From: Clytia hemisphaerica
Taxonomy: Eukaryota; Cnidaria; Hydrozoa; Leptothecata; Clytiidae
Length of the DNA stretch: 64,000 bases
Reading direction: 5' to 3'
Assembly: GCA_902728285.1 (NCBI GenBank)
Contig: CACVBU010000393.1
Location: 124,001-188,000, forward strand
The notes beneath the pieces are model-generated. The model did no database searches and was not told where the DNA came from. It saw only the letters and a list, made by a program, of their open reading frames with translations. Position numbers and translations under genes: made by a program. Every line of letters starts with the position of its first letter. Position 1 is the stretch's first letter. Shown here piece by piece: positions 4,246 through 60,723 of the stretch.

Positions 4246-7200
4246 ATGAGTTCTTGTCATTGCAATTATAATTTACAAACAAAATTCATCCGACACGTGC
4301 GACGAAATTCGAGAATGTATCACTTAGCAAGCTGCTTGGCAGCAGCTGCCATCGGACAAAAATATTTTGATCTTCCATGGTTAACTGCATTAGCCGGCGG
4401 TGCTGCCGCATATATTCTCACTGGAGGTTGGAAATGGGTACGCTTGTTTTATCTGACTATCGGTAGAGATCTGCAACTTGGAAAAGTATTCATTGGTGTA
4501 GAAATGTTTATCCGTAATCTATCCAAGAATAACATGGTCGTAGCTGATGTCTTCTCCGAAACTGCAAAGAAATTTCCCAACAAACCAGCATTCGTTTCAG
4601 TTGATACAGGAGCCTCCATGACCTACCAGGAAGCAGAAGAATTCAGTAACAAGATTGCAAACATTTTCCAAGAAGCTGGCTATAAGAAGGGTGATGTAGT
4701 TGCTTTATTGATGGAGAATTGCATCGAATACATCCCGATTTGGATCGGATTGACTAGAATTGGTGTCACTGTATCTCTTTTGAATTACAACGTCAAAGGG
4801 GAAGGCTTAAAACACTGTATCACAGTGGCTGATTGTAAAGCTGTTATCTATAGCCCAACACTTGAAGGCTCTTTGAAGGACATCGAATCTTCTTTGGGAA
4901 ACATGAAATACTACATGTTTGCAGATAGTGCTGGTGAACTAGATCGAGCACAAAGTTTGAAGAAGTTGATGAATTCTGCATCTTCTTACGCTCCAAGCAG
5001 ACATGCACCACTCTCAATCACCGATAAAATGTTGTTCATTTACACATCGGGTACCACTGGATTACCTAAAGCTGCTGTCATCCGAGGTACAAGATTCACA
5101 TTCATGAGCTATGCGGTCGCCCATGCTATCGGAGCGAAAGCGGACGATGTTCTTTACAATACTTTACCACTTTATCACAGCAATGGCGGTATTGGGCTTG
5201 CTGGACAAATCCTTTACACTGGCAGTACTTTGGTTATCCGTAAGAAGTTTTCAGCAAGTCGATTCTTTGAAGATTGTTATAAACACGATGCGACTATCGT
5301 CAACTACATCGGAGAGACATGCCGGTATCTTCTATCCACGCCACCAGGAGAATTCGACCGCAAACACAAAGTTCGAATTGCTACAGGAAACGGCCTACGA
5401 CCTTCCATTTGGGACGACTTCAAAGATCGCTTCAACATTGGTATGATTGCGGAATTTTATGGTGCCACGGAGGGCAATGCAAACATGATCAATAACACTG
5501 GCAAAAGTGGAGCTGTTGGATATAATTCTGTTCTCTTCCCTTTCGTTTACCCAATCAAGATTGTCCGTATCGATAAAGAAACTGGTATGAAGATTTTTTA
5601 AATTAACGCCGGACTAATTACAGAAATCCAAAACACAATTGCAATGTTGCTTTTGTCACTTAAATCTTTTAGTCTTCAACTTCAACTTTTCAATCAGATT
5701 TTCTTCTCCATTTCGGATACCTGATTATTTTCTTATGACCTTCTTCTTAACTCTTATCAGGTGCTTTACTTCGAGGACCAGACGGTTTGGCCATTCCATG
5801 TGGGCCAGGAGAGATAGGGGAACTAGTGGGTAAAGTAAAAACAGACGCCATACATCAATTCGATGGATATGTTAACCAAACCGCCACTAAGAAAAAGATC
5901 GCGTACGACGTCTTCAAGAAAGGAGATTCAGCTTTCATGACCGGAGATGTTTTGTACCAAGATGAATTGGGATATTATTTCTTCCAGGATCGTATGGGAG
6001 ATACCTTTAGGTTAGTAGCACTCTTCTCTTTTACACTAAAGATCATGTACCTAGCAATCTCTTTATTTATCTTTATCTACATTGAATCAACTATTAACAA
6101 GTCGACTTTAAGCCGAAAATTTCGCCTATTATGTGAAAAATAAGTTGAAGTTAAGTTAAGGTTCATAAAAATGCGAATCGCTTTAATAACGATACAATCC
6201 GTTGAAAATGATAAAAAATGAAGAGCTTTGGTATTTTGACTATATACTTGTATTCTTTTTATTAGAACGATGAGGCTTTAAATTGCCAATTTCACCCTAA
6301 TAATAACATGATCAGAACAATTTGAGGCTCAAAGTGCCAAAAAAATGAGAACAGCCGAGCCTCATCAAAAACTTACTAGTTCTTATTAAAAAAAAGCGTA
6401 TTATAATTAGGATAAGAAGAAGAAAAATTTTACAATCAATATCCATTAGGTTTGTTTCAATTCAATCTTATGTTAACTTTCAACATGCGCGTTATCTTTT
6501 AACAGATGGAAAGGAGAGAACGTGTCCACCAATGAAGTTGAAGGAGTGATCAGTAAAGCATTGGAATTGAGCGATGTTTGCGTTTACGGTGTCGACGTTG
6601 ATGGTGTGGAAGGAAAAGCTGGTATGGTCATCATGTCCGACCCTGAACGAAAGGTAAGATACATTGAGTCTGCTTTCTCCCATCTGATTCTGGCTAGTCC
6701 AAGTTTTATCAGAGAAAATCGTAAAAAATTCGAAAAAAAACAAGGTGTAAAAGAAAAGAGCTTTATGCGTTGCTATAAAGTTTTGGAAAAATAATAAAAT
6801 TACTTTCTAAAGTATTAAAGTATTAAAACATTTTTCCAAAGATAGAAGAAAAAGCAGTGAAAGTGAGATTAATTTTAGATGATCGTTAACGAGGTGTAAT
6901 AAAAAACCCTTTTTTCCACAAAATAAGAGCTCATAAAATACCATTATTCAGATGATAAGGGATGAGCTATACCAGAATCAAAGATAGATTTCACTATCGC
7001 CCCCTTTTATGTTTCAGGTCAAGATCGAAGATGTGTACCGCCTTATAAGTCGTTCATTACCTGCTTACGCATGCCCCATTTTCCTTCGTATCACGACTGG
7101 CGACCTGGAGAAAACGTCAACGTACAAATACAAGAAAGTGAAATTACGCGAGCAATTTTATGATCCCTCGTTGTGTGGAAGCGATGAATTGTTTTATTTC

Positions 7201-36700: not shown

Positions 36701-39700
36701 GCTAAGAAACAATTTTAATGACATTTATACCATGTGTCAGCTTGTCTTGAATCCTGAAGGTTTGAAATATACCTTTTGATTGCAATGTCACACTTTAATA
36801 ATTGTTTCAAGTTACTCTGTAGGATTTGAAAACCAATTGTAGAAAACTTTTTAAGTATGAAACTGTTACCTGTCATGAAACTTTAATCTAGAAGTACTTA
36901 ATACCAAACAGCTGTTTTATGATGGAAATCCCTCAAAAATGAACAAAGATATATCATCATATATAATTACAATAGCCTGCAAAATTGAAGGCTTGTACAA
37001 GAAAGAAAAATTCCCGGTTATTTGCTAGCAAGTGTCTGCTTGGATTAAATCCTTTAGAAATAGAATTTATACAATTAATTGTCGCTGACATAATGTCTAC
37101 CGGCTTGCAATTGATAATTGCAGGACTCAAGTGGAGAGTTACCAGCAAGATGCCAATAGATTTAATGGTATCAGCCAGAAGAATTTTTATGTAGTTAAAA
37201 TCATTAGGCGATTCTCAAATGTATTTTGGCTTAGAACCTTAGCTAGGTACTAATTTTTTTATGCTTTTAGTTTGGACGGTTTGAAAAATGTAACTACCAT
37301 TTAAAAATGGTGAAGAGGTTCTTACTTTGAAAACTCTAAATAATTTTGTTACAATATCTTTGTTTATGTTACAGGAAGCCTTCTGGAATGCGGCTTGAAG
37401 AGAACTTGCTGCATGAAGAAAGCAGAGGAAAACTTGTTATCTTCAAGTGAAAAAGCCCGCATTGGCTTGTCTAACCCACTTCACAAATTGAAAGATATGT
37501 TTCAAGGGAAAAGAGTGGAGTTTAAAGGTATGTCATATTGTTTATTCAAAAGATATTCCCACTCAGCGATACAATATGAAGATATTGAGTTGCATTTGCA
37601 TAAGGCTGTTCAAATTAACAATGGCATAAATTAAAAGCAGGAAGGACGAGAGTTGAAATGACTATATTAAATGACAAGAGGAAGAGACCTTTGATTTGAT
37701 GGCTTCCCCTTTAAAAGGTTGTACCAACCTCTCATTAATTCTCATGTCATTGAATACCAAAGAAAGTATAGAAAAGTGCTTCTTGCGTAATTTCCGCGTA
37801 TTTTCCGCGGTAAAGAGTGCAGGAAAAGTGAGCACGCTATTCTATTTTGAACCCTTTGTCTATTGATATTGCTCAATCATTTTGTTTGACATTTTGAAGT
37901 TAAAAAAAAAGGCTGAAGCCCTTGCAAAGTACAAGAGTATTTTTTCATGATGAAGCTAATCCCGAATTTAATCCTTTGTCACTTCTTTACCGAAAGATAC
38001 AAACTTTTCAACCATTTAAAATATACCCTTATGGCTAACAAGAATAAATACCCTTTTTACTTTTTTGTGTCATTTTCAAGGTTCTCATCTTTCCCTTTCC
38101 ATATGTTCTACTTTTATTAAAAATGACACGGACCAATAATTGGTTTGTCATGGGGAGATTTTGTACTCGAACACTTTTCTTTTATGAGAAGGGATCGTCA
38201 TTTGCTAAGCTGATTATTGATGAATCAAATTTCCTTCGCTTTTATTCTCCTCTTTATTTTCGTCGCCTTGGTGTGACGCGTCATTTGTACAAAGAGAAAT
38301 CGATGACAATTTGGGTTATTTGTGATCTTATGTTACTTCACATTTTTTAAACAAGCTTCTAATTTTTTATTTTCATTTTCATAATGGGCATTAAAAAAGT
38401 TAGCACATCCAAAGATCTTCCAGTTCACAAACTTTGTCATTGCTCACGGACGAAGTATAAGAATTTTTTGCTTTTTTAATCACTCACTAATCTTTATGGC
38501 TCCATTAAAGACCTTTCCCTTGGTTTCAAATCCTTTTGTTAATGTTTTACTAATTGGATTCTGGTTTCATTGCTGATCATTAAGTTTGAAATTATTTTTC
38601 GTGGTTTTTTTATCACTAAAACTCGTCGTGGTTTTTTCCTAATGTTGATTATCCCCCTCTTTTTTAAGACAACTATCAAATTATGATGAACGTGTCACAG
38701 AGTAACCTCCATTCCATGTTCGAAAACACGTACAAATCACACTACACGAACAATGCTTATATTATCGATGATTTATACAAATCCCTTCGACAATACATTA
38801 ATGGTGGAGAACTTGACTTGAGAGTGAAATTCAACACTTTCTTCGGAAATCTCCACGAAAAAGTTTACGTCATGGTTAACCCTGGCAAAACTTTCGATGC
38901 AAAATACAGAAATTGTATCCGAGACAACACGAACTCTGTCAAACCTTTTGGCGACAAACAAAACACAATTTCCACACAAATGACCCGAGCTTTTGAAGCG
39001 TCGAGGGTATTTTTACAAGGCCTCAAAGAAGGCATGGACGTTAGTTTGAAATTACTGGATTCACCAGTTCATGAAAAGTGTAAATTAGCTTTCATGAAAA
39101 TGTCAAAATGCTCGATATGTTATGGACTCAATCCTAACGGGAAACCCTGCGCCAATTATTGTTTGAATGTAATGAAAGGCTGTTACGCTTACACTATGAT
39201 GTTTCAACCGCGATGGAATACTTATATTCACGCTATGACGGAGCTAGTCGCTAAATTAAAAGGTCCCTTTAATATGGAAGTATTCGTTGTACCATTGGGC
39301 GTTCAGATTTCTGGAGCTATCATGACCTTCCAAGAGAATATTCAGAATGTCACACGCAAGGTAAATCAATCATGATACGTTAGAAATATTATATTAAAGA
39401 TGCCATTTATTTTAAATACGATTTCTGTCTAGGTTGTTGAATTAAACATGCTTATTGGTAGGAGCATAATGCGGAATTTTTAATCAATCAAAATATGAGA
39501 TAAGGTTATTTCTGCCTCCAAAAGAATTTTATCTTCTATTTAAATCGTCTGTTTGGTCGAAATATTTTAATATCGTTTTCTCTTTTCTTTCCGATAACAA
39601 TCTTTCTCGATATTCTACTAATCGGATTTTATTTATGCTTAGACGAGATGAGTAGAAGATTTTGGTTTTTGAATATTTTAGGTTGAAGCTGTGTGTGGCC

Positions 39701-49448: not shown

Positions 49449-49546
49449 ATTTTATATCGCTTAAAATCAGACGAATTCATTATGCCGAGCGGACGCAGTC
49501 TAGAGTGAGTCTTCACAAAAGGCTGCGGAACGCCGGCTAAGTCCTC
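49449..49546 (+). repeat. DIRS left terminal repeat
   Basis: 98 bp matched exactly, inverted, at 53708-53805. Its distal 11 bp (ATTTTATATCG) are absent from the right terminal repeat. Confidence 0.9.
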
Positions 49547-49571
49547 TTCTCACTTTCGTTTTCGGATCAAG

Positions 49572-52500
49572 ATGGCGTCGCCAACGACCGAAAAAACTAA
49601 AGTGAGATATGATGTGACTAAATCTAATAAATCTAATGAGAACAACACAATCAGTGAGGAAAATCAATTAAATGATGCAGATTTAACAAAAACAAACGTT
49701 GAAGGAACTGATAGGAACGGTAGTTTAAAGGAAAGAGGAAGAGACAAGAAGAAAAAGAGGAAAAGAACACCCTCTCCCTCATCCTCCTCCAGCAGAAGTT
49801 CCAGTTCATCATCAAGCAGCTCAAGTAGCTCCGATTCCTCTGAGGAGAGACGGAAAAAGGAGAAAAAGAAGAAGAAGCAAAAGAAGAAAAAGCAAGTCAA
49901 AAAGAAACGAAAATCCAGAAAAAGAAGCAGAAGTTCCTCTACCTCATCATCTAATTCGAGTGACGACAAACCAGAATTATTCCAGATGGACGTCAATGAA
50001 CATGACTGGAAACTTGATCCCAGACTTGTGAAGTATCTGGAGAAGCACATCAGGAATTACATACCTGATAAAGAGCTTGAAAAGGACATACTGGAAGAAA
50101 CACCAGTCCCAAGCAACGTCTCACCTGAGTTAAAAATGGATTCATTATTCGATTGCTTACTCAGAGAAAAAGGGTCAATGGGAACTAAAACCCTGGCCGT
50201 GGACAAATCGATATCCCGGATATCGAATAAAGTCAGAGATATCTTGGCTCCGCTTGCCAAAATCTGGCAGAGCGTTGAGAGAGCAAGATCAGGAGACGAG
50301 AATGAAAAACTCGATCTCGAAGAGGTGGCCACTCATTTCCAACAGTCGATACTGCTGTTAGGACAGGCCCTCAATGCCAGCAATTTCTTCCGAAGGAAAA
50401 ATGCTTTGATGGGACTTGGCATTCGTGAAAGCCATATCAGTGTGTGGCTCAGAGAGACCCTATTAGAGGAGTTACAAGAAAGTGATGGAAAACTTTTTGG
50501 AGAGGAGACAATAAAATCCCTCACAAAACAGGCAAAAGTGAACAACCAGTCACTCAAACAATTCCTCTTTTCAAGAAGAGTTCAAACAGCTAATCGCACT
50601 CCCTTTTCATGGAGCTCCTCCCAATCAACAAGCCACGGAGAGGGGCACGAACAATACACCGATGAACAACAGGCTGGCTTGCACCACAGAATTCAAAACC
50701 GAAGAGGCAAAGGTAAGAAAAATTCTGTCAAACTTCACAGAACCTCTCTCCAGTCAAGCAAAACCTCTGCTGACAAACGAGGAGTCACAAAAATTTGGGA
50801 AAATACACCCAAGTATAAAAACCTCATAGAGGATTTATCAAATCCCCAGTTGACACAGACTGGAAGGACAGGATTTTTTCAAAACAATTGGTCAAAACTG
50901 ACTCAGGACAAATTCATCTTGGAAACAGTTTCAGGCTTAGTGATCCCAATAATAGGGAAGCCGATTCAAAAAACAAGACCACAACAAATAAATTCAAATT
51001 CCAAAATGAAAGCCTTGATAAGAGCAGAGATAAGAACCTTACTGGAGAAAGGGGCTGTGAAGAGAGTTCTAAACACAGAAGGTCAATTTTTGTCCACTCT
51101 ATTTTTAAAAGAGAAAAAGGAACCAGGAAAATACAGGCCAGTTATAAATCTAAAGGAACTGAACTCATACATTCCATATCAAAAATTCAAAATGGAAACT
51201 TTAAAGGATGTGAAAAACATCCTCCAGAAGGGGGACTTCATGGTCAAAATCGACCTGAAGGACGCTTATTTTGCAATACCGTTGCATCCCCAATCAAAGA
51301 AGTATGTGAGATTCAGCTGGGAAGGAAGCCTATACGAATTCCAATGCCTGATGTTCGGATTGGGACCAGCTCCCAGGTTCTTCACAAAACTACTCAAAGT
51401 ACCCATTTCACTGTTGAGAAGGTTACAAATAAGAGTCCTCATATACATAGACGACCTATTGATAGTAGCAGGGTCGAAAGGAGAAGCAATCTTCTCAAGG
51501 GACACAACAATCTTTCTTCTGGAGAATCTAGGGTTTACAATAAATCTACAGAAGTCTGTACTGGTACCAAACCAACAGATGGAGTATCTGGGAGTCTTAA
51601 TAAACAGTTGCGATATGACCTTCAAAGTCCCACTAGAGAAAGTGCGAAAACTGAGGAAATTATGCATTCAAATGTTGAGTCTGAAAACTTTTCCCATAAG
51701 GAAACTAGCGAGCCTAATAGGGAATCTTATGGCAATCGCCCCAGCCTTCACCCTAGCACCACTCCAAATAAGGTTCCTTCAAAAATGCATGAACACGCAA
51801 TTAGCGAGATGCGAACAGAGATACGAGTCTGCAATGAGCTTGAACAACAAAGCAACGGAGGAGCTAAAGTGGTGGGTAGAAAACCTTTCGACAGGAAATG
51901 GGAAAAACATAAACATCTTACCCCCAGATTTAATTATAAGCTCAGACGCGGCAAAGGGAAGAGAAGGAGGATGGGGTGCCCACTGTGGTCAGATCTCGTC
52001 AGGAGGACTATGGCAAAGTTGGGAAAAAGAGGAACATATAAATGTCCTAGAGATGAAAGCAGCTCTCATAGCTCTGAAAACCTTTGTGAAGGGAAATCAT
52101 CTGAAGTCAATACATCTATTGATAGACAATCAGGTAGCTCTAGCTCACATTGTGAAAATGGGTCGACCAACAAATTTGACTCTAGTAAACATAGCCAAGG
52201 AAATATGGTCTTTCTTGACCCAGAAAGGGATCACTCTTACTGCAGAATACATCCCATCGAGCTTGAACAAGGAAGCCGACTTCGAGTCCAGGAACTCGAC
52301 AGACTGGAGCGATTGGAAGCTAAAAAGGAGGGTTTTCATACAGATAGTGAAAACTTTGGGAACTCCAGAAATCGACCTATTTGCTTCCAGAACAGCCCAC
52401 CAACTGGAAACCTATTTCAGTTGGAGACCAGACCCGGATTGTCAAGCAATAGATGCATTAACTCAGACCTGGGACCAAACTCTAGCATATGCATTTCCCC

Positions 52501-52886
52501 CATTTTCTCTGATAGGGAGGTGCCTGGAGAAAGCGCAAAGGTCTCGAGCTACAGTAATTTTGATAGCCCCAATCTGGACAACCCAACCCTGGTATCCAGT
52601 TTTACTGGGGATGTTAATCTCAAACCCAAGGAAGATAGAAATGGAAAGGGACACTCTAACCCACCCATTGGAGGAAACGCACCCTCTCATTCGAAACAAA
52701 ACACTGCACTTGGCAGTGTGGGAGATATCAGGGAACATGAGTCTTCAGAGGGCATATCACAAACTGCTGCTACCCTTATCCAACAATCCAAAGCAAAGGG
52801 AACTAGGAGACATTACATGTCAGCCTGGAAAAACTTCAGTAGCTGGTGTCGTAAAAGGGAAATTGATCCCATTTCAAGTACTATAG
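49572..52886 (+). CDS. DIRS ORF1: gag-like region, reverse transcriptase, RNase H, methyltransferase-like domain
   Basis: 1104 codons, uninterrupted. Residues about 55-130 are a Lys/Arg and Ser-rich tract (KKKRKRTPSPSSS, KKKQKKKKQVKKKRKS, KRSRSSSTSSS), probably nucleic-acid binding or SR-like. A gag-like helical part follows to about 330. Reverse transcriptase spans roughly 450-700: KYRPVINLKELN, MVKIDLKDAYFAIPLHP, MFGLGPAPRFF and the catalytic YIDDLLIVAG near 625. RNase H follows with ISSDAAKG near 790, VLEMKAALIAL, LLIDNQVALAHI and YIPSSLNKEAD. The last part (EIDLFASRTAHQLE, YAFPPFSLIGRCL, LIAPIWTTQPWYP) matches the DAM/methyltransferase-like region of DIRS elements. The initiating ATG sits in GATCAAGATGGCG, 25 nt after the left repeat. 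An intact frame suggests recent activity. Confidence 0.92.
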   Translation: MASPTTEKTKVRYDVTKSNKSNENNTISEENQLNDADLTKTNVEGTDRNGSLKERGRDKKKKRKRTPSPSSSSSRSSSSSSSSSSSSDSSEERRKKEKKKKKQKKKKQVKKKRKSRKRSRSSSTSSSNSSDDKPELFQMDVNEHDWKLDPRLVKYLEKHIRNYIPDKELEKDILEETPVPSNVSPELKMDSLFDCLLREKGSMGTKTLAVDKSISRISNKVRDILAPLAKIWQSVERARSGDENEKLDLEEVATHFQQSILLLGQALNASNFFRRKNALMGLGIRESHISVWLRETLLEELQESDGKLFGEETIKSLTKQAKVNNQSLKQFLFSRRVQTANRTPFSWSSSQSTSHGEGHEQYTDEQQAGLHHRIQNRRGKGKKNSVKLHRTSLQSSKTSADKRGVTKIWENTPKYKNLIEDLSNPQLTQTGRTGFFQNNWSKLTQDKFILETVSGLVIPIIGKPIQKTRPQQINSNSKMKALIRAEIRTLLEKGAVKRVLNTEGQFLSTLFLKEKKEPGKYRPVINLKELNSYIPYQKFKMETLKDVKNILQKGDFMVKIDLKDAYFAIPLHPQSKKYVRFSWEGSLYEFQCLMFGLGPAPRFFTKLLKVPISLLRRLQIRVLIYIDDLLIVAGSKGEAIFSRDTTIFLLENLGFTINLQKSVLVPNQQMEYLGVLINSCDMTFKVPLEKVRKLRKLCIQMLSLKTFPIRKLASLIGNLMAIAPAFTLAPLQIRFLQKCMNTQLARCEQRYESAMSLNNKATEELKWWVENLSTGNGKNINILPPDLIISSDAAKGREGGWGAHCGQISSGGLWQSWEKEEHINVLEMKAALIALKTFVKGNHLKSIHLLIDNQVALAHIVKMGRPTNLTLVNIAKEIWSFLTQKGITLTAEYIPSSLNKEADFESRNSTDWSDWKLKRRVFIQIVKTLGTPEIDLFASRTAHQLETYFSWRPDPDCQAIDALTQTWDQTLAYAFPPFSLIGRCLEKAQRSRATVILIAPIWTTQPWYPVLLGMLISNPRKIEMERDTLTHPLEETHPLIRNKTLHLAVWEISGNMSLQRAYHKLLLPLSNNPKQRELGDITCQPGKTSVAGVVKGKLIPFQVL

Positions 52887-53998
52887 AGACCGTAGTCAAC
52901 TACTTGACAACCTTATTCGAAGAGGGTAAAGAATATAACACCATAAATGGGCATAGATCAGCCATATCCTTTTACCATAGAATTGTTGAAGGGCTACCAG
53001 TGGGGCAACATCCACTGGTCACTTCCTTACTAAAAGGAGTTTCAAGACAGAGACCCCCGATGCCTAAATATACGGAAATATGGGACATCGACACAGTGTT
53101 GAATTGTATGAGGGAATTACCAGAAAACGAACATTTACAACTAAAGGAACTTACTTTTAAAACTGTAACACTTTTGGGAATCCTGGCGCCAAATAGAGGC
53201 TCGGAACTTACGGACCTGGATATTGATCTCATGGGGAAATCAGAAACGACTTTCATTTTTCATTTAAGTACACCACCCAAGCATTTCAAACAAGGAAAGA
53301 AAAATGAACCAATAGAATTTAGGAAATTTGAGGGAAATAGGAAGCTTTGTCCATATCAAGCCCTTACCGAATACATCAAAGTTACAAAGGTGTTTAGGAA
53401 AAAACAGCAAACCTCTAAATTATTTTTGAGCTATGTCGAACCACACAAGCCCGTAGGAAAGGATACAACAGCTAGATGGGTAAAAGAGATGTTAAAAATG
53501 GCGGGCATTGACATCAACATTTTTCAGGCTCACTCCAAGAGGTCAGCCTCTTCTTCAAAGGCATACAAAAAAGGGGCAAATCTTAAAGACATTTTAAAAA
53601 TGGGGAACTGGTCTAATGCATCAGTATGGCAAAAATTTACAACAAAGAATTCAGTTCGGCAGAAAAGTACCAAAATATACTCCTACAGGACTGAAGTTGC
53701 TTTAAACGAGGACTTAGCCGGCGTTCCGCAGCCTTTTGTGAAGACTCACTCTAGACTGCGTCCGCTCGGCATAATGAATTCGTCTGATTTTAAGCGATAT
53801 AAAATTTTAAAATTTTCTAAGGCCGAAGGCCGAAAAGGAAATTTGAATTTTATGAGCTTAAAATCAGACGAATTCATTCCCATCCCTCCTCCCTACTTTT
53901 CTTTTAAACTGCTTACACTGTATTCTATCTTTTATGCAGAGAACCACAATCGAGGGAAAAGACGTGGTCGTGGCGGCAGACGAGGAAGGAGATCTTAA
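52688..53998 (+). CDS. DIRS tyrosine recombinase, overlapping ORF1 in another frame
   Basis: The recombinase-like sequence begins near 52688, overlaps the end of ORF1 by about 200 nt, and replaces integrase in this order. Core-binding part: SKAKGTRRHYMSAWKNFSSW. Catalytic part: Arg in NRGSELTD (near 53194), His-x-x-Arg in AHSKRSAS (53530-53541), and MGNWSNASVWQKFT. Where the nucleophilic Tyr is expected after Phe, this copy has Thr (53639-53641). The frame runs open through the whole internal complementary region and ends in a basic tail (GKRRGRGGRRGRRS). The first ATG in the core is at 52817; the frame is also open upstream without homology, so the true start is unknown. Confidence 0.85.
   Translation, partial: HSKQNTALGSVGDIREHESSEGISQTAATLIQQSKAKGTRRHYMSAWKNFSSWCRKREIDPISSTIETVVNYLTTLFEEGKEYNTINGHRSAISFYHRIVEGLPVGQHPLVTSLLKGVSRQRPPMPKYTEIWDIDTVLNCMRELPENEHLQLKELTFKTVTLLGILAPNRGSELTDLDIDLMGKSETTFIFHLSTPPKHFKQGKKNEPIEFRKFEGNRKLCPYQALTEYIKVTKVFRKKQQTSKLFLSYVEPHKPVGKDTTARWVKEMLKMAGIDINIFQAHSKRSASSSKAYKKGANLKDILKMGNWSNASVWQKFTTKNSVRQKSTKIYSYRTEVALNEDLAGVPQPFVKTHSRLRPLGIMNSSDFKRYKILKFSKAEGRKGNLNFMSLKSDEFIPIPPPYFSFKLLTLYSIFYAENHNRGKRRGRGGRRGRRS
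53708..53878 (+). repeat. DIRS internal complementary region
   Basis: 171 bp. 53708-53805 complements the left end and 53801-53878 complements 54187-54264 at the right end. The 5-bp overlap AAAAT marks the junction of the two termini. It is read as protein by the recombinase frame. Confidence 0.92.
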
Positions 53999-54157
53999 AC
54001 TTTATATCTATATAGTTTATATTTTATTTAGTTATTAATATTAGCATTTCATTCAAGGAAAGATATATTAATATATACGTCACATGCGACGTCTACACAT
54101 TTCTATTTGTCACATCATATAGGACGCATCTACGATGCTTTTCTTAGCCTTCGTTCC

Positions 54158-54264
54158 ACTCACTCTAGACTGCGTCCGCTCGGCATAATGAATTCGTCTG
54201 ATTTTAAGCTCATAAAATTCAAATTTCCTTTTCGGCCTTCGGCCTTAGAAAATTTTAAAATTTT
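54158..54264 (+). repeat. DIRS right terminal repeat
   Basis: 54158-54209 is the inverted match to the left repeat. The outer 55 bp (TTTTCGGCCTTCGGCC and the AAAATTTTAAAATTTT end) are present only here and, inverted, in the internal complementary region. Confidence 0.88.
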
Positions 54265-57223: not shown

Positions 57224-58767
57224 ACTTAGACTCGCACACCTTTTTCAGAATGTCAATATTTTCTTGATCAGCATCTTTCAAAAGACTTTTGATTCGGTGT
57301 TAGGGCGCATGACTAAACTGTCTATGTAGTTTTTGCATCATTCCTTTCTTCTCTTCTACTGAGTTTGCAGAACCAAATAGAGCCAAACTATCGCATTCAG
57401 ATTTTCTGTTGCTGTTGAGATCATTTGTGCAATATCCAAGTGGGATGCAATAGTGACCAGAGGAAGTGAACATAAGCTTTGAGTTTGTCCAAAAATTGTG
57501 AAATTGTCATGAATGAAATCAATATTCATTTCAGCCTTTTTCGTGGCATCTTTGCTTGGTTTACTCAAAAGTAAGGGTAGGTCTCCATCGATGACATCAG
57601 TTTCGATAAATACATTCTTTCCTCCAATGTATGCTGGTACCTTTACTTTCTTCAAGGATTTCACACTATCTCCATTGCCAAACTTGAAGCTTGTGCTGCT
57701 TTTGAATTCCTTCACTGTTGATAGTTGATTTTTGTCCAGTGTCTCTAGATAGCATCCAAGCCATGTTTTTCCACATACATTCTTTGTACATCCAGAGTCC
57801 AACACTGCTGTGCCAAGGGTTTCTCCCACAAAATGCTTTAAAGTGTCACTAAATAAGGCTATCTCGTCATCTTCTTTGCTCTTGTTCTTGTGCTTCATTA
57901 AATTGTCATATGAATCAGGATAATCCCTGGCCCAATGAAACACTGATCCACAAACCATACAAGTTGAAGGGGCACCGTCTGGTCCAGCTGGGTTTTGTCT
58001 TGGTTTTCCATCTTGATGTCTTCTTTCCGCACCACCATGCTATCCACGACCTCCTATACCTCTAAAATTGAATCGTCCACGATTAGGTCGAGATCTTCCA
58101 CCACGATTTGATCTATCACGGTAATTTCCATAGTAAACTTCTTCTGCTTCCTCGTCTCTGCTTGGTGTCTCAAATGTCATCTCATTTCGTGACTCAAACT
58201 TCACCTGATTGTTTACAGCACCTACATCTTTGCTCTTGTTTGAAGATACCGAGAGGCTCAAATCTCCAAAAACCTTGCAAAGTTGGTCTTTCATTGAATT
58301 GTAAGATAGCTCAGTCATTGTTGCTCTAATTAACTTTTCGTGTGAATCTGAGATGTTTGCATTATTGAGGAACTTGTACACTAAGATACCATCAGGGAGA
58401 ATCATTTCGTAAGCTTTGGCTTTGTTGTACAGATGTTCAAACTCGACAACAAAATCTGCAATTGGCATATCATTGGGTCGTTTAAACTTCCGAAAACTGT
58501 CATATGCTTGAAACGAGAGTTGCAGCTTATCTTTGAGATACAGTTTATCTAGTTGTGCAAGCACCTTGCTCACACCATCATCTTTACTTACTTTTGCTAC
58601 TACTACCTCTAACTCCAGCGCAGCTTCCCTTGCTTTGGCTTCAAAGGATAATAAAATTGCCAAGCCTTGCTTCTTCTTCTCCAACGAAGTGAAGAGCTTC
58701 CAAATGGTTATTTCCTTCTTCCAGTTTTCGTAAGGAACATCCTCCCTCAATGCCGACGGGGCTTTGA
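57224..58767 (-). pseudogene. Copia-order LTR retrotransposon remnant: gag, zinc knuckle, protease, start of integrase
   Basis: Minus strand. 58750-58040 encodes a gag of the UBN2/Retrotran_gag kind (YENWKKEITIWKLF, AYDSFRKFKRPND, VVEFEHLYNKAKAYEM), with an RGG-like tail stopped by an in-frame TAG at 58037-58039. The same frame continues with a zinc knuckle CMVCGSVFHWARDY whose last Cys is Tyr, and a retropepsin-like VLDSGCTKNVCG, to a stop at about 57356. After a frame change come LHRQFSHAP and DILKKVCESK, the H-H-C start of an integrase zinc finger, with a stop in between. Protease followed directly by integrase is the Ty1/copia order. Integrase is cut at 57224 by the CCAGACG element. Gag is interrupted near its start by the LINE at 58768-60690. 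Confidence 0.8.
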
Positions 58768-60690
58768 TATCATTATTATTTTTATTATTATTAACGAATA
58801 TTTATTCAGGATAATTACTTTTCAGTTCTAAAAATGTACAATATTTACATAAATATATACAATAAAACTGTTTTCCGTTGCAGTCCTGATAAAATATAAA
58901 AACCTAAAAATCAAAAAATATAATTAATAAATGAGCTAAAATATTGAAAAAATCTAAAAGGCTAAAGGCACTGGAGAAAAAAGGAAAGAGAAAATTAAAC
59001 GTAGGGCTAAATGCATAGACCAGAAGTAAATCAAATAGTAATTAACTTTGAAGACTACGGAAAAATAGTAATGGAGTTAGAAAAAATTTGATCAGACTAC
59101 ACAGTGCCAGGGTAAAATAGTTAATCTGAACCTAAAAATTCTCTGTTTGATATACCTAAACTATTGACAATTTTTGCAGCACCAAAGTAAAAACTTGGCC
59201 TCGATGCTTGCAGTTTGATACTAGGTAGTTGTAATAATTTGTTATTGTTCCTTGTACCACGATCATGTTTTATAACTTTAAAATAATTATCAAAAATATC
59301 ATGTTGGTACACTTTCTTTACACAATTTTTCACCATTGTGCAAAGTTCTTTCTCCATCAAAGATTCAGTCTTTTTAACTGAAGGGATACCAATGATCTTA
59401 GCTGCACGACGTTCTAGAGAAGCAAGCTTTGATTTTTGCCCCTCGTTGAAGGTGGTTTTGATCGAGCAACTATAAGTCAACAGTGGGACAATCATCAGTT
59501 CATAAATTGATTGTGCAGCACTGGCTGTCAAAAATTTTCGAACACCAAATAACAAACGTAATCGACCTGAGGCAGTTTTGTAGGATTTGTCAAAATTAGT
59601 GGAAAGGTTGAGGTGGTGATCAATGACATTTCCAAGATAACAATATTGGGTCACAGAGTTAACGATGGTGTTGTTGTACTTTATCGTAACTGTTTTTCCA
59701 TACCTTGCCATTCGTTGAGCAGTACCCAGCAACATTACCTCAGTTTTACCTTTCTTAAAATTTAGTAAAAGTTCATTCTCCTCACAATATTTGACAATGG
59801 TTGATTGATCTTTATTGAGGGCAGTTTCGATTTCATTTGTTGTTTTGGCACCAAAATAGATAACAGTGTCATCGGCATATTGAATGATTGAAGAGTGTTG
59901 GATAGAATCACAAAGGTTGTTAAAAAAGACAATGAAGAGGAGTGGCCCAAGAATTGACCCCTGTGGGACTCCTGATGTGATAGCCTCTTTTTCCGAAAAG
60001 ATGCTGTTGATTTCAACACATTGGGTACGATTAAATAGATAGTCGGTGATCCAGGCTAGTTCTGGCCCAGAAACACCATGTAATAAAAGTTTTTCAATGA
60101 TCAAACTGTGCCCCATTGTATCAAAGGCTTTAGAAAGATCTAAAAACAGACATCCAAGAAGTCCATCTTCAAAGCCTCTCCGCACAGAATCACACAGGAG
60201 GGTAGCAGCAAGTTTGGTGGATCGTCTTTTTCGAAAGCCAAACTGACAGTCTGAAAGAAGTTTATTATCTTCCAAGAATGAATATAGCTGGTCATGTACT
60301 GTTCTTTCAAGCAGTTTTGACAAAATCGGTAATATTGAAATAGGTCTATAGTTTTCGACAAGATCTACGTTTCCGGACTTGAAGACTGGGTTAACTTTTG
60401 CAGTTTTCCAAATGGTGGGCACTGTGCTGGTCATTAACGATAGGTTGATGATGTGAGATATCGGATCAGCAATCTGCTCAGCGCAGTCTTTTAACATATT
60501 CGGCGGGAGTGAATCCATACCAGTTGCTTTGTTACGTTTTAATTTGTTTAAATGTTTTAAGATATAGCCAGGAGTGATGAACGAGAACTTGAAGATACTT
60601 TTAGTTCGCAAGGGACGTTTCTGGCCGTAGCTCCACGTACAGTTTCTGAGTGGAAAGCTAATCGACTTCATCTTTTTCACGATTGTAGAA
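58768..60690 (-). mobile_element. 5'-truncated LINE inserted in the copia-like gag
   Basis: The minus-strand 3' end is an A/T-rich TAATAATAATAAAAATAATAATG tail type (written here only as its repeat, TAA/AAT) at 58768-58796, directly followed by gag sequence ATCAAAGCCCCG. At the 5' side the element meets the copia gag start (ATGGCAAACAAGAA) near 60690. The insert contains one long RT frame. Confidence 0.75.
59121..60680 (-). CDS. LINE reverse transcriptase (ORF2 RT and C-terminal part)
   Basis: 519 codons without a stop. RT motifs in order: [79 protein letters not shown], the catalytic IIQYADDTVIYF and LLLNFKKGKTEVMLLG. The thumb and C-terminal region follow, ending GISNREFLGSD. No endonuclease precedes it, so the copy is 5'-truncated and cannot move alone, yet its RT frame is intact. 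Clade is CR1/Jockey-like by motif style; a tree would decide. The first Met is simply the first in the frame; no native start is implied. Confidence 0.85.
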   Translation of the reverse strand: MKKMKSISFPLRNCTWSYGQKRPLRTKSIFKFSFITPGYILKHLNKLKRNKATGMDSLPPNMLKDCAEQIADPISHIINLSLMTSTVPTIWKTAKVNPVFKSGNVDLVENYRPISILPILSKLLERTVHDQLYSFLEDNKLLSDCQFGFRKRRSTKLAATLLCDSVRRGFEDGLLGCLFLDLSKAFDTMGHSLIIEKLLLHGVSGPELAWITDYLFNRTQCVEINSIFSEKEAITSGVPQGSILGPLLFIVFFNNLCDSIQHSSIIQYADDTVIYFGAKTTNEIETALNKDQSTIVKYCEENELLLNFKKGKTEVMLLGTAQRMARYGKTVTIKYNNTIVNSVTQYCYLGNVIDHHLNLSTNFDKSYKTASGRLRLLFGVRKFLTASAAQSIYELMIVPLLTYSCSIKTTFNEGQKSKLASLERRAAKIIGIPSVKKTESLMEKELCTMVKNCVKKVYQHDIFDNYFKVIKHDRGTRNNNKLLQLPSIKLQASRPSFYFGAAKIVNSLGISNREFLGSD

Positions 60691-60702
60691 TTTCTTGTTT
60701 GC

Positions 60703-60723
60703 CATCAAATTCTTGTTTGCCAT
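60703..60723 (-). other. Start of the copia-like gag frame
   Basis: Minus-strand ATGGCAAACAAGAATTTG followed by a second ATGGCAAACAAGAA, 16 nt downstream of the primer-binding site. The frame is then broken by the LINE insertion and resumes at 58767. Confidence 0.55.

What the first reader, a model, noticed from the sequence alone, without database searches (positions are those of the whole stretch)
49449..54264. Near-intact DIRS element with a base-perfect internal complementary region
The junction copy at 53708-53878 matches 98 bp of the left end and 78 bp of the right end without a visible mismatch, with a 5-bp overlap AAAAT. ORF1 is open over 1104 codons. Perfect complementarity in sequence that drifts freely once dead implies very recent insertion or continuing activity. 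Such intact copies are useful for studying integrase-free retrotransposition.
Basis: partly seen in the sequence, partly recalled or inferred. Interest (0 to 1): 0.75.

Follow-up and report, generated by a model that had tools for sequence, protein, structure and literature searches.

The report
Broken DIRS element with hidden exon
The stretch is one disabled copy of a DIRS jumping gene whose relatives in the same animal genome appear to use RNA splicing to add an RNA-binding tail, encoded beyond the copy-restoring region, to their shell protein.

Summary
The repeats are as described: 98 and 78 bp, without a mismatch. The element is DIRS1-like. Copies elsewhere in its genome put its right end at 54262; the shared core is ATT, the published 3-bp junction.

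It is not intact. Two one-base length changes, absent from the close copies (7 of 7 and 6 of 6 covering the sites), break it. One throws gag into the pol frame and creates the "1104-codon ORF1". The other cuts off the recombinase just before its catalytic tyrosine. Copy L010 has equally perfect repeats but eight indels of its own, so perfect complementarity does not show activity.

The relatives revealed more. Gag and recombinase share one long frame, with pol nested out of frame and stops excluded from the shared frame (0 seen, 23-41 expected, in 6 of 7 families). A phase-1 splice donor ends gag in 7 of 7 families. An acceptor lies 51-74 nt past the internal complementary region in 7 of 7 and opens an Arg/Gly-rich exon in 6. 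I infer that spliced RNA makes Gag with an RNA-binding tail and unspliced RNA makes Gag-recombinase. No transcript was available.

The parts
49449..54262 (+). whole DIRS1-like element (4814 bp), ATT at both ends
   Evidence: repeats; both ends read in 11 insertions, this one included, single ends of others
49449..49546 (+). left terminus, complementary to the left ICR (first 10 bp divergent, 49459-49510 shared with the right ITR)
   Evidence: I1, I3, D1
49572..50712 (+). gag, from the ATG to the predicted splice donor (predicted exon 1, ends in phase 1)
   Evidence: open frame; donor
50713..53939 (+). predicted intron (3227 nt) holding pol, recombinase and ICR
   Evidence: donor ranks 1st of 158 GTs, acceptor 3rd of 389 AGs in the element; conserved in other families
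50816..50821 (+). frame break 1: one-base length change private to this copy; gag runs into the pol frame
   Evidence: 7 of 7 close copies differ
51114..51596 (+). reverse transcriptase domain (PF00078) in the pol frame
   Evidence: E 1.1e-19
52311..52598 (+). Dam-like methyltransferase region of pol (weak)
   Evidence: L009 E 0.038, L019 E 6.5e-4, both below the curated cut-off; placed in the window by counting from L009
52778..53650 (+). tyrosine recombinase: N-terminal SAM-like domain (PF13495) and catalytic domain (PF00589)
   Evidence: alignment
53635..53694 (+). frame break 2: one-base length change private to this copy; the tyrosine codon and native C-terminus lie in another frame
   Evidence: (6 of 6 covering copies differ)
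53708..53805 (+). left ICR, exact complement of the left terminus
53803..53878 (+). right ICR, exact complement of the right terminus (reported as 53801-53878)
53879..53899 (+). C-rich tract directly 3' of the ICR; a similar tract stands there in the other six families
   Evidence: ICR ends re-measured
53940..53998 (+). predicted exon 2: Arg/Gly-rich Gag tail ENHNRGKRRGRGGRRGRRS and stop
54158..54209 (+). right inverted terminal repeat, conserved part
   Evidence: D1, I3
54210..54262 (+). right extension, matched only by the right ICR
   Evidence: I2

Best explanation
The element is one copy of a multi-copy DIRS1-like retrotransposon of an animal genome. It came in recently, most likely by tyrosine-recombinase integration of a circle whose joined ends carry an ATT core, into a genomic ATT, without target duplication. 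As assembled, this copy cannot be autonomous: one single-base change puts gag into the pol frame, another removes the recombinase's catalytic tyrosine. In the family and its relatives, gag and recombinase are read as one frame (1374 codons in L009), and RT/RNase H/MT (about 780 codons) is nested in the +1 frame. The gag end carries a phase-1 splice donor. An acceptor about 60 nt past the ICR starts a short exon that gives Gag an Arg/Gly-rich, presumably RNA-binding, tail. Inferred working: spliced RNA (pol, recombinase and ICR removed) makes structural Gag. Unspliced RNA makes Gag-recombinase, makes pol by +1 shifting or another route, and is the template from which the ICR restores both ends. 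Shown: sequence, boundaries, breaks, excluded stops, conserved splice signals and exon. Inferred: splicing, the fusion protein, how pol is expressed, and end restoration (published model, PMC5633606).
For: Repeats. Domains: RVT_1 1.1e-19, Phage_integrase 2.9e-8, SAM-like 2.2e-7. Seven close copies, 0.29-0.91% substitutions from the window copy. Private breaks. Tyrosine present at that place in the reading of L009, L010, L014, L015, L016, L017, L019, L020, L025 and L029-L032; L011, L012, L013, L018, L022-L024 and L026 are cut, shifted or not shown there. One gag-YR frame with nested pol in L009, L019, L029, L031, L032, and in L020 and L025 with an insertion or a local shift inside gag. Stops in that frame across pol: 0 seen against means of 30.9 (L009), 27.9 (L019), 27.0 (L020), 23.3 (L025), 27.4 (L029), 36.0 (L031), 40.9 (L032); no synonymous shuffle reached 0 (2000 or 500 each). 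The peptide there is weakly conserved between L009 and L019 (46% against 73% for pol overall and 80% for the YR end), so the frame seems kept open for passage. The donor sequence stands in 19 of 19 copies of the first three families that reach it and in 4 of 4 further families; it ranks 1st among all GTs of the element in 6 of 7 families and 2nd in one. Exon: exactly one Arg/Gly hit past the ICR in 6 of 7 families, always in the required phase; 0 such hits in 117,400 strand-bases of control. Acceptors 51-74 nt past the ICR in 7 of 7. Seven families differ: pol 44-73% identical. Empty paralogous sites without duplication for L009, L010 and L017.
Against: No transcript, protein or circle was seen. 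L032 has a strong acceptor but a stop right after it, so no Arg/Gly tail. In L030 gag lies in the pol frame, its recombinase is split, and its stop test gave 24 seen against 67 expected over a frame that includes gag; its donor is in phase with the recombinase frame, not the gag frame. The donor stretch also codes in pol and gag, which could keep it by itself in close families, though its last base varies (GTAAGA or GTAAGT) in distant ones. Acceptors are uneven: 30th of 377 AGs in family 2, not among the best six of its 3' region, and sixth in L029. One of 400 shuffles of the window's 3' region also gave an exon hit. In both empty sites of L017 the core reads TTT, not ATT. How pol is expressed is not explained.
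Confidence: 0.78

Rival explanations
1. One reading: a near-intact, possibly active DIRS copy with ORF1 of 1104 codons.
For: Perfect repeats; RT domain open; young.
Against: Gag is in the pol frame and the recombinase lacks its tyrosine in frame, both through changes private to this copy.
Confidence: 0.05
2. The two one-base length changes are assembly errors in short runs of one base, and the real copy is intact.
For: Both lie in runs of one base; L010 also has several one-base deletions in runs.
Against: The copy also has 11 private substitutions, a usual ratio to 2 indels in a dead copy (general knowledge). Close copies L009, L011, L013 and L014 show no one-base indel of their own in the gag-pol-recombinase frames as far as they reach.
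Confidence: 0.12
3. No splicing: the Arg/Gly stretch past the ICR and the donor are sequence features kept for reverse transcription or packaging, and gag-YR is simply one long polyprotein.
For: The donor lies inside two coding frames; no RNA evidence; L032 has no Arg/Gly tail.
Against: Phase agreement in 6 of 6 families with an exon and 0 control hits in the required phase; spacing of 51-74 nt from the ICR; the same donor core with a different last base in distant families.
Confidence: 0.13
4. The gag-YR frame is open over pol only because of pol's own composition, and the recombinase starts internally.
For: The peptide in the overlap is poorly conserved (46%) and has no Pfam match at E 1 (protein 7).
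Against: Synonymous shuffles of pol give 23-41 stops on average and never 0 in 7 copies of 6 families.
Confidence: 0.05

Closest known systems
DIRS1-like retrotransposons of animals (Piednoel 2011, PMC3266345, e.g. molluscan AcaDIRS1, LgDIRS1; abstract, passages and section 10 read)
   Same: ATT ends, AAT junction, right extension of about 50 bp, inverted termini, ICR, RT and recombinase, size 4-6 kb (Table 3).
   Different: The left ICR here (98 bp) covers the whole left ITR and runs past it; the two ICR parts sum to 174 bp, against 85-130 bp stated in the paper's text (its own Table 3 row for AmDIRS1 sums to 149). Gag and YR share one frame; predicted spliced exon past the ICR. The words intron, splic-, RGG and fusion do not occur in that paper's main text.
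DIRS-1 of Dictyostelium (PMC5006619, PMC5633606; passages read)
   Same: RT ORF overlaps the recombinase ORF in another frame; +1 frameshift proposed there; ICR; circle seen in an agnA deletion strain.
   Different: There gag (ORF1) is a separate ORF. Intron or splicing is not mentioned in PMC5006619, and in PMC5633606 only for a retrotransposition assay cassette.
Pat1-like, Ngaro and other YR retroelements (PMC4157794, PMC6681497; passages)
   Same: Recombinase in place of integrase.
   Different: Split direct repeats. In PMC4157794 a Gag zinc finger marks Pat1 among PAT elements; the Arg/Gly tail proposed here could serve as the RNA-binding part in Gags without one (inference).
Retroviral gene expression (recalled, no call)
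   Same: Works like it: one promoter, unspliced and spliced RNAs make different proteins.
   Different: Here splicing would complete Gag rather than make an envelope or regulatory protein. It is not a member of that family.

Membership tests
DIRS1-like | Inverted terminal repeats plus internal complementary region matching both ends | tested here: met
   also in L009-L011 and L019, L026, L029, L031, L032
DIRS1-like | ICR halves overlap in a 3-bp junction; NTT ends | tested here: met
   ATT ends; AAT junction
DIRS1-like | Tyrosine recombinase domain | tested here: met
   PF00589 34.1 bits, cut-off 27.1; L019 26.1, just below; in this copy the catalytic tyrosine is out of frame
DIRS1-like | Gypsy-like reverse transcriptase and RNase H | tested here: inconclusive
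   RVT_1 met, not compared with Gypsy; RNase H seen only as a motif read by eye (recalled), no Pfam hit
DIRS1-like | Dam-like methyltransferase after RNase H | tested here: inconclusive
   Dam 0.038 (L009) and 6.5e-4 (L019), below cut-off; no Dam hit for the window frame itself
DIRS1-like | No target site duplication | tested here: met
   paralogous empty sites for L009 (1), L010 (3), L017 (2); none found for the window copy (right flank; left flank search, never answered)
DIRS1-like (usual layout, not a defining feature) | gag as a separate ORF | tested here: not met
   gag and YR in one frame in 6 of 7 families; L030 is unclear
PAT-like / Ngaro | Split direct repeats | tested here: not met
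   The end repeats are inverted; the direct repeats (D1, D2) are the ICR halves against the termini, as an ITR-plus-ICR layout gives

The most novel reading that the evidence does not exclude
These animal DIRS elements sort their RNAs by one conserved intron. Splicing removes pol, the recombinase and the ICR, and completes Gag with an Arg/Gly RNA-binding tail placed between ICR and right end. Only unspliced RNA makes Gag-recombinase (in place of a Gag-Pol fusion as the main fusion) and can restore the element's ends. The arrangement predates the split of families with pol 44-73% identical.
Probability: 0.62. Interest if true: 0.75.

Novelty: new variant of a known kind. Interest (0 to 1): 0.6.

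Why it matters
How DIRS elements express gag, pol and recombinase from one RNA, and what serves as their nucleocapsid, is left open in the passages I read. A conserved intron with a gag tail past the ICR gives a testable answer. It would also explain why the region between the ICR and the right end is kept, and why the gag-recombinase frame stays open across pol. For the finding itself, it shows that perfect ICR complementarity and a long ORF are not evidence that a DIRS copy works.

Tried and rejected
Tried without result: relatives in viral contigs (one search was run in the wrong frame) and genome contigs: none. Protein searches: plasmids gave only distant recombinases for the YR and two weak matches for the gag-pol frame; phages one weak match. 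Rfam and tRNA scans: nothing. Right flank of the window copy: its first 324 bases occur once in the assembly, the last 64 are a repeat, so no empty allele or paralog. NCBIfam: only Xer-type hits, far below cut-off. Structure prediction was not run.

Considered and rejected: a 41-nt mini-intron joining gag to pol (read by eye: phase does not fit); the readthrough of the recombinase frame across the ICR to 53998 as a real product (L009, L010, L014 and L015 stop at the native end); a 5-bp junction core (other copies show 3 bp).

Dropped rows: the junction query used 11 of the insertions. L012 (right end lost), L015 (left end lost), L013, L014, L020, L021, L023, L027, L028 and also L024 (right end seen, but left out) were not used. 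L025's right core was read as TTT. In one search spanning hits that I did not count as empty sites: L019 (72.5%, gapped), L022 (its own end) and L026 (39 nt). L021 was left out of the donor scan and L028 does not reach the donor; in L012 and L023 local indels disturb the reading upstream of the donor. The stop test was run on 8 copies (L009, L019, L020, L025, L029-L032), chosen for an open or nearly open pol; L030 gave 24 stops. Splice ranks: 9 sequences, with donor and acceptor weights recalled and approximate. In one search the acceptor cut-off of 2.0 was chosen after family 2's score of 2.3 was known. One search used ICR ends set by hand; for L031 and L032 they were too short, and one search corrects the spacing (L031 51 nt, L032 about 65 nt). 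For L026, whose right end has decayed, the ICR end is taken from its match to the window ICR.
Full report
WHAT WAS CLAIMED. A near-intact DIRS element at 49449-54264 with a base-perfect internal complementary region (ICR) and an ORF1 of 1104 codons.

CHECK. The repeats are exact: 49449-49546 against 53708-53805 (98 nt) and 53801-53878 against 54187-54264 (78 nt). The 1104-codon frame 49572-52886 exists. Pfam finds a reverse transcriptase in it, and a tyrosine recombinase in a second frame downstream. So it is a DIRS-type element.

BOUNDARIES. The genome of the window is held (417 Mb, 951 contigs; window at C277:124001-188000). Both ends were read in 11 insertions, single ends of others. Every left end found reads ATT. 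After the right ...ATT the bases vary between copies. Paralogous empty sites were found for three other insertions: L009 (1 site), L010 (3) and L017 (2). They show one core and no target duplication; in L017's two sites the core reads TTT. No empty site was found for the window insertion: its right flank has no second copy, and the left flank search did not complete.

NOT INTACT. Seven close copies (L009-L015) differ from the window copy by 0.29-0.91% in substitutions. Against them the window copy has 11 private substitutions and two private one-base length changes. The first, near 50820, differs from 7 of 7 covering copies; the second, near 53635, from 6 of 6 (L013 ends before it). In copies L009, L011 and L013 the gag frame runs on into the recombinase frame, and RT/RNase H/MT sits in another frame of 778-781 codons; L014 is the same with one stop. 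In the window and in L012 gag is thrown into the pol frame, which makes a chance ORF of 1104 codons in the window. The second change removes the recombinase C-terminus: the alignment is unbroken up to ...NWSNASVWQKF and then fails, while L009 and L019 carry the tyrosine next. L010 has the same perfect repeats and ten indel differences from the window copy, eight of them its own. With 11 private changes in 4469 other sites, 0.85 are expected in the 345 repeat sites, so zero is unremarkable (P 0.43). At least one other copy has both long frames open; I do not go further into that.

A HIDDEN ARCHITECTURE. I compared seven families from the same genome, pol 44-73% identical between families: the window family, those of L019 and L025, and L029, L030, L031 and L032. 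In six, gag and recombinase share one frame (L009, L019, L029, L031, L032 directly; L020 with an insertion in gag; L025 with a local shift inside gag), and pol is nested at the same offset. Synonymous-codon shuffles of pol give on average 23-41 stops in the gag-YR frame; the real sequences have 0 in 7 copies of 6 families (L009, L019, L020, L025, L029, L031, L032), and no shuffle reached 0. L030 does not fit (24 seen, 67 expected, its gag being in the pol frame). Between L009 and L019 the overlap peptide is 46% identical in the gag-YR frame, against 73% for pol overall and 80% for the recombinase end; third positions of pol differ at 42%, first and second at 16% and 13%. So the frame is kept open but its peptide is loosely held. 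That is expected if ribosomes coming from the gag start must reach the recombinase.

THE INTRON. At the end of gag stands G|GTAAGA or G|GTAAGT. The sequence is in 19 of 19 copies that reach it in the first three families (8, 9 and 2), in phase 1 of the gag frame where that frame is undisturbed, and in 4 of 4 further families (in L030 in phase with the YR frame). In an alignment of five copies from three families the 8 bases AGGTAAGA are the longest run without change. Scored with generic, recalled weights it is the best GT of the whole element in six families and second in one. Past the ICR, 51-74 nt on, an acceptor opens a short frame that fits only a phase-1 donor: ENHNRGKRRGRGGRRGRRS (window), GNLNGPPRRGYYRGRGRRGK, GHNFNRRGGRGRGK, GNNHSRGRRSHRGG, GYGPPGVKPRGRGRGRGRGGYRGWR and GRYFRGRRGRGGYRGN. 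A rule for such exons gave exactly one hit in the roughly 600-nt 3' region of these six families, always in the needed phase, none in L032, and 0 in that phase in 117,400 strand-bases of control from the window (2 in other phases); shuffled 3' regions gave a hit in 1 of 400 for the window and 0 of 400 for each of the other six. The rule's acceptor threshold was set after the family 2 score was known. L032 has a strong acceptor about 65 nt past its ICR, followed at once by a stop.

HOW IT MOST LIKELY WORKS. Spliced RNA: Gag with an Arg/Gly tail, which would be the RNA-binding part. Unspliced RNA: Gag-recombinase, pol through +1 shifting or another route, and the template whose ICR restores the ends. 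Joining of the ends gives an ATT core; recombination with a genomic ATT inserts the element. The last two steps follow the published model (PMC3266345, passages and section 10; PMC5633606, passages). Splicing, fusion protein and pol expression are inferences; no RNA was available.

AGAINST THE LITERATURE. DIRS1-like elements are described with three ORFs, gag separate (PMC3266345; PMC9210276, passages), and with pol/recombinase overlap in many. I found no mention of a spliced gag or an exon past the ICR. Paper searches: (listings). The words intron and splic- were looked for in the main text of PMC3266345, PMC9210276, PMC3783388, PMC2685390 and PMC5006619 (no occurrence), PMC5633606 (assay cassette only), PMC6681497, PMC8547959, PMC9004415 and PMC4157794 (nothing on DIRS introns in the passages shown); of PMC12477816 only the DIRS passages were seen. 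The library holds open papers only, so older subscription papers may say more. The left ICR, 88-110 nt in the six families where it was measured, lies at the long end of the 24-110 nt listed in Table 3, where only AmDIRS1 (110) is as long, and in the window copy it covers the whole left ITR.

VERDICT. The copy is ordinary and disabled; the family's layout is a new variant of a known kind and worth an RNA test.

Noticed in passing
53879-53899; L019, L026, L029-L032 just past the ICR: A C-rich tract (polypurine on the other strand) starts directly at the ICR end in all seven families looked at, nearly identical in four of them (with ICR ends). It may be a priming site.
   Followed up: partly
G000, whole genome: The pol search had 1029 first-look candidates, 65 scored, 74 matches listed, many with open pol frames at 36-49% identity: a large, diverse DIRS population.
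   Followed up: partly
L031, position 972 on the strand of the element: A strong splice donor lies upstream of gag (7.1, best of that element), perhaps a 5' leader intron.
   Followed up: no
59121-60704 (-): Open 527-aa frame with a reverse transcriptase (RVT_1 1.4e-30), LINE-like by eye.
   Followed up: no
57356-58801 (-): Two adjoining open frames resembling, by eye, gag and the start of pol of a copia-type element; only weak Pfam hits.
   Followed up: no
4246-5601 (+) and 38668-39375 (+): Host genes: an AMP-binding enzyme that looks like a fatty acid transport protein, and a glypican.
   Followed up: no
1390-2216: Tandem array, 171-bp unit, 4.9 copies.
   Followed up: no
L017 and L010 flanks: Two DIRS families inserted into members of one repeat family, which supplied the empty sites.
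   Followed up: yes
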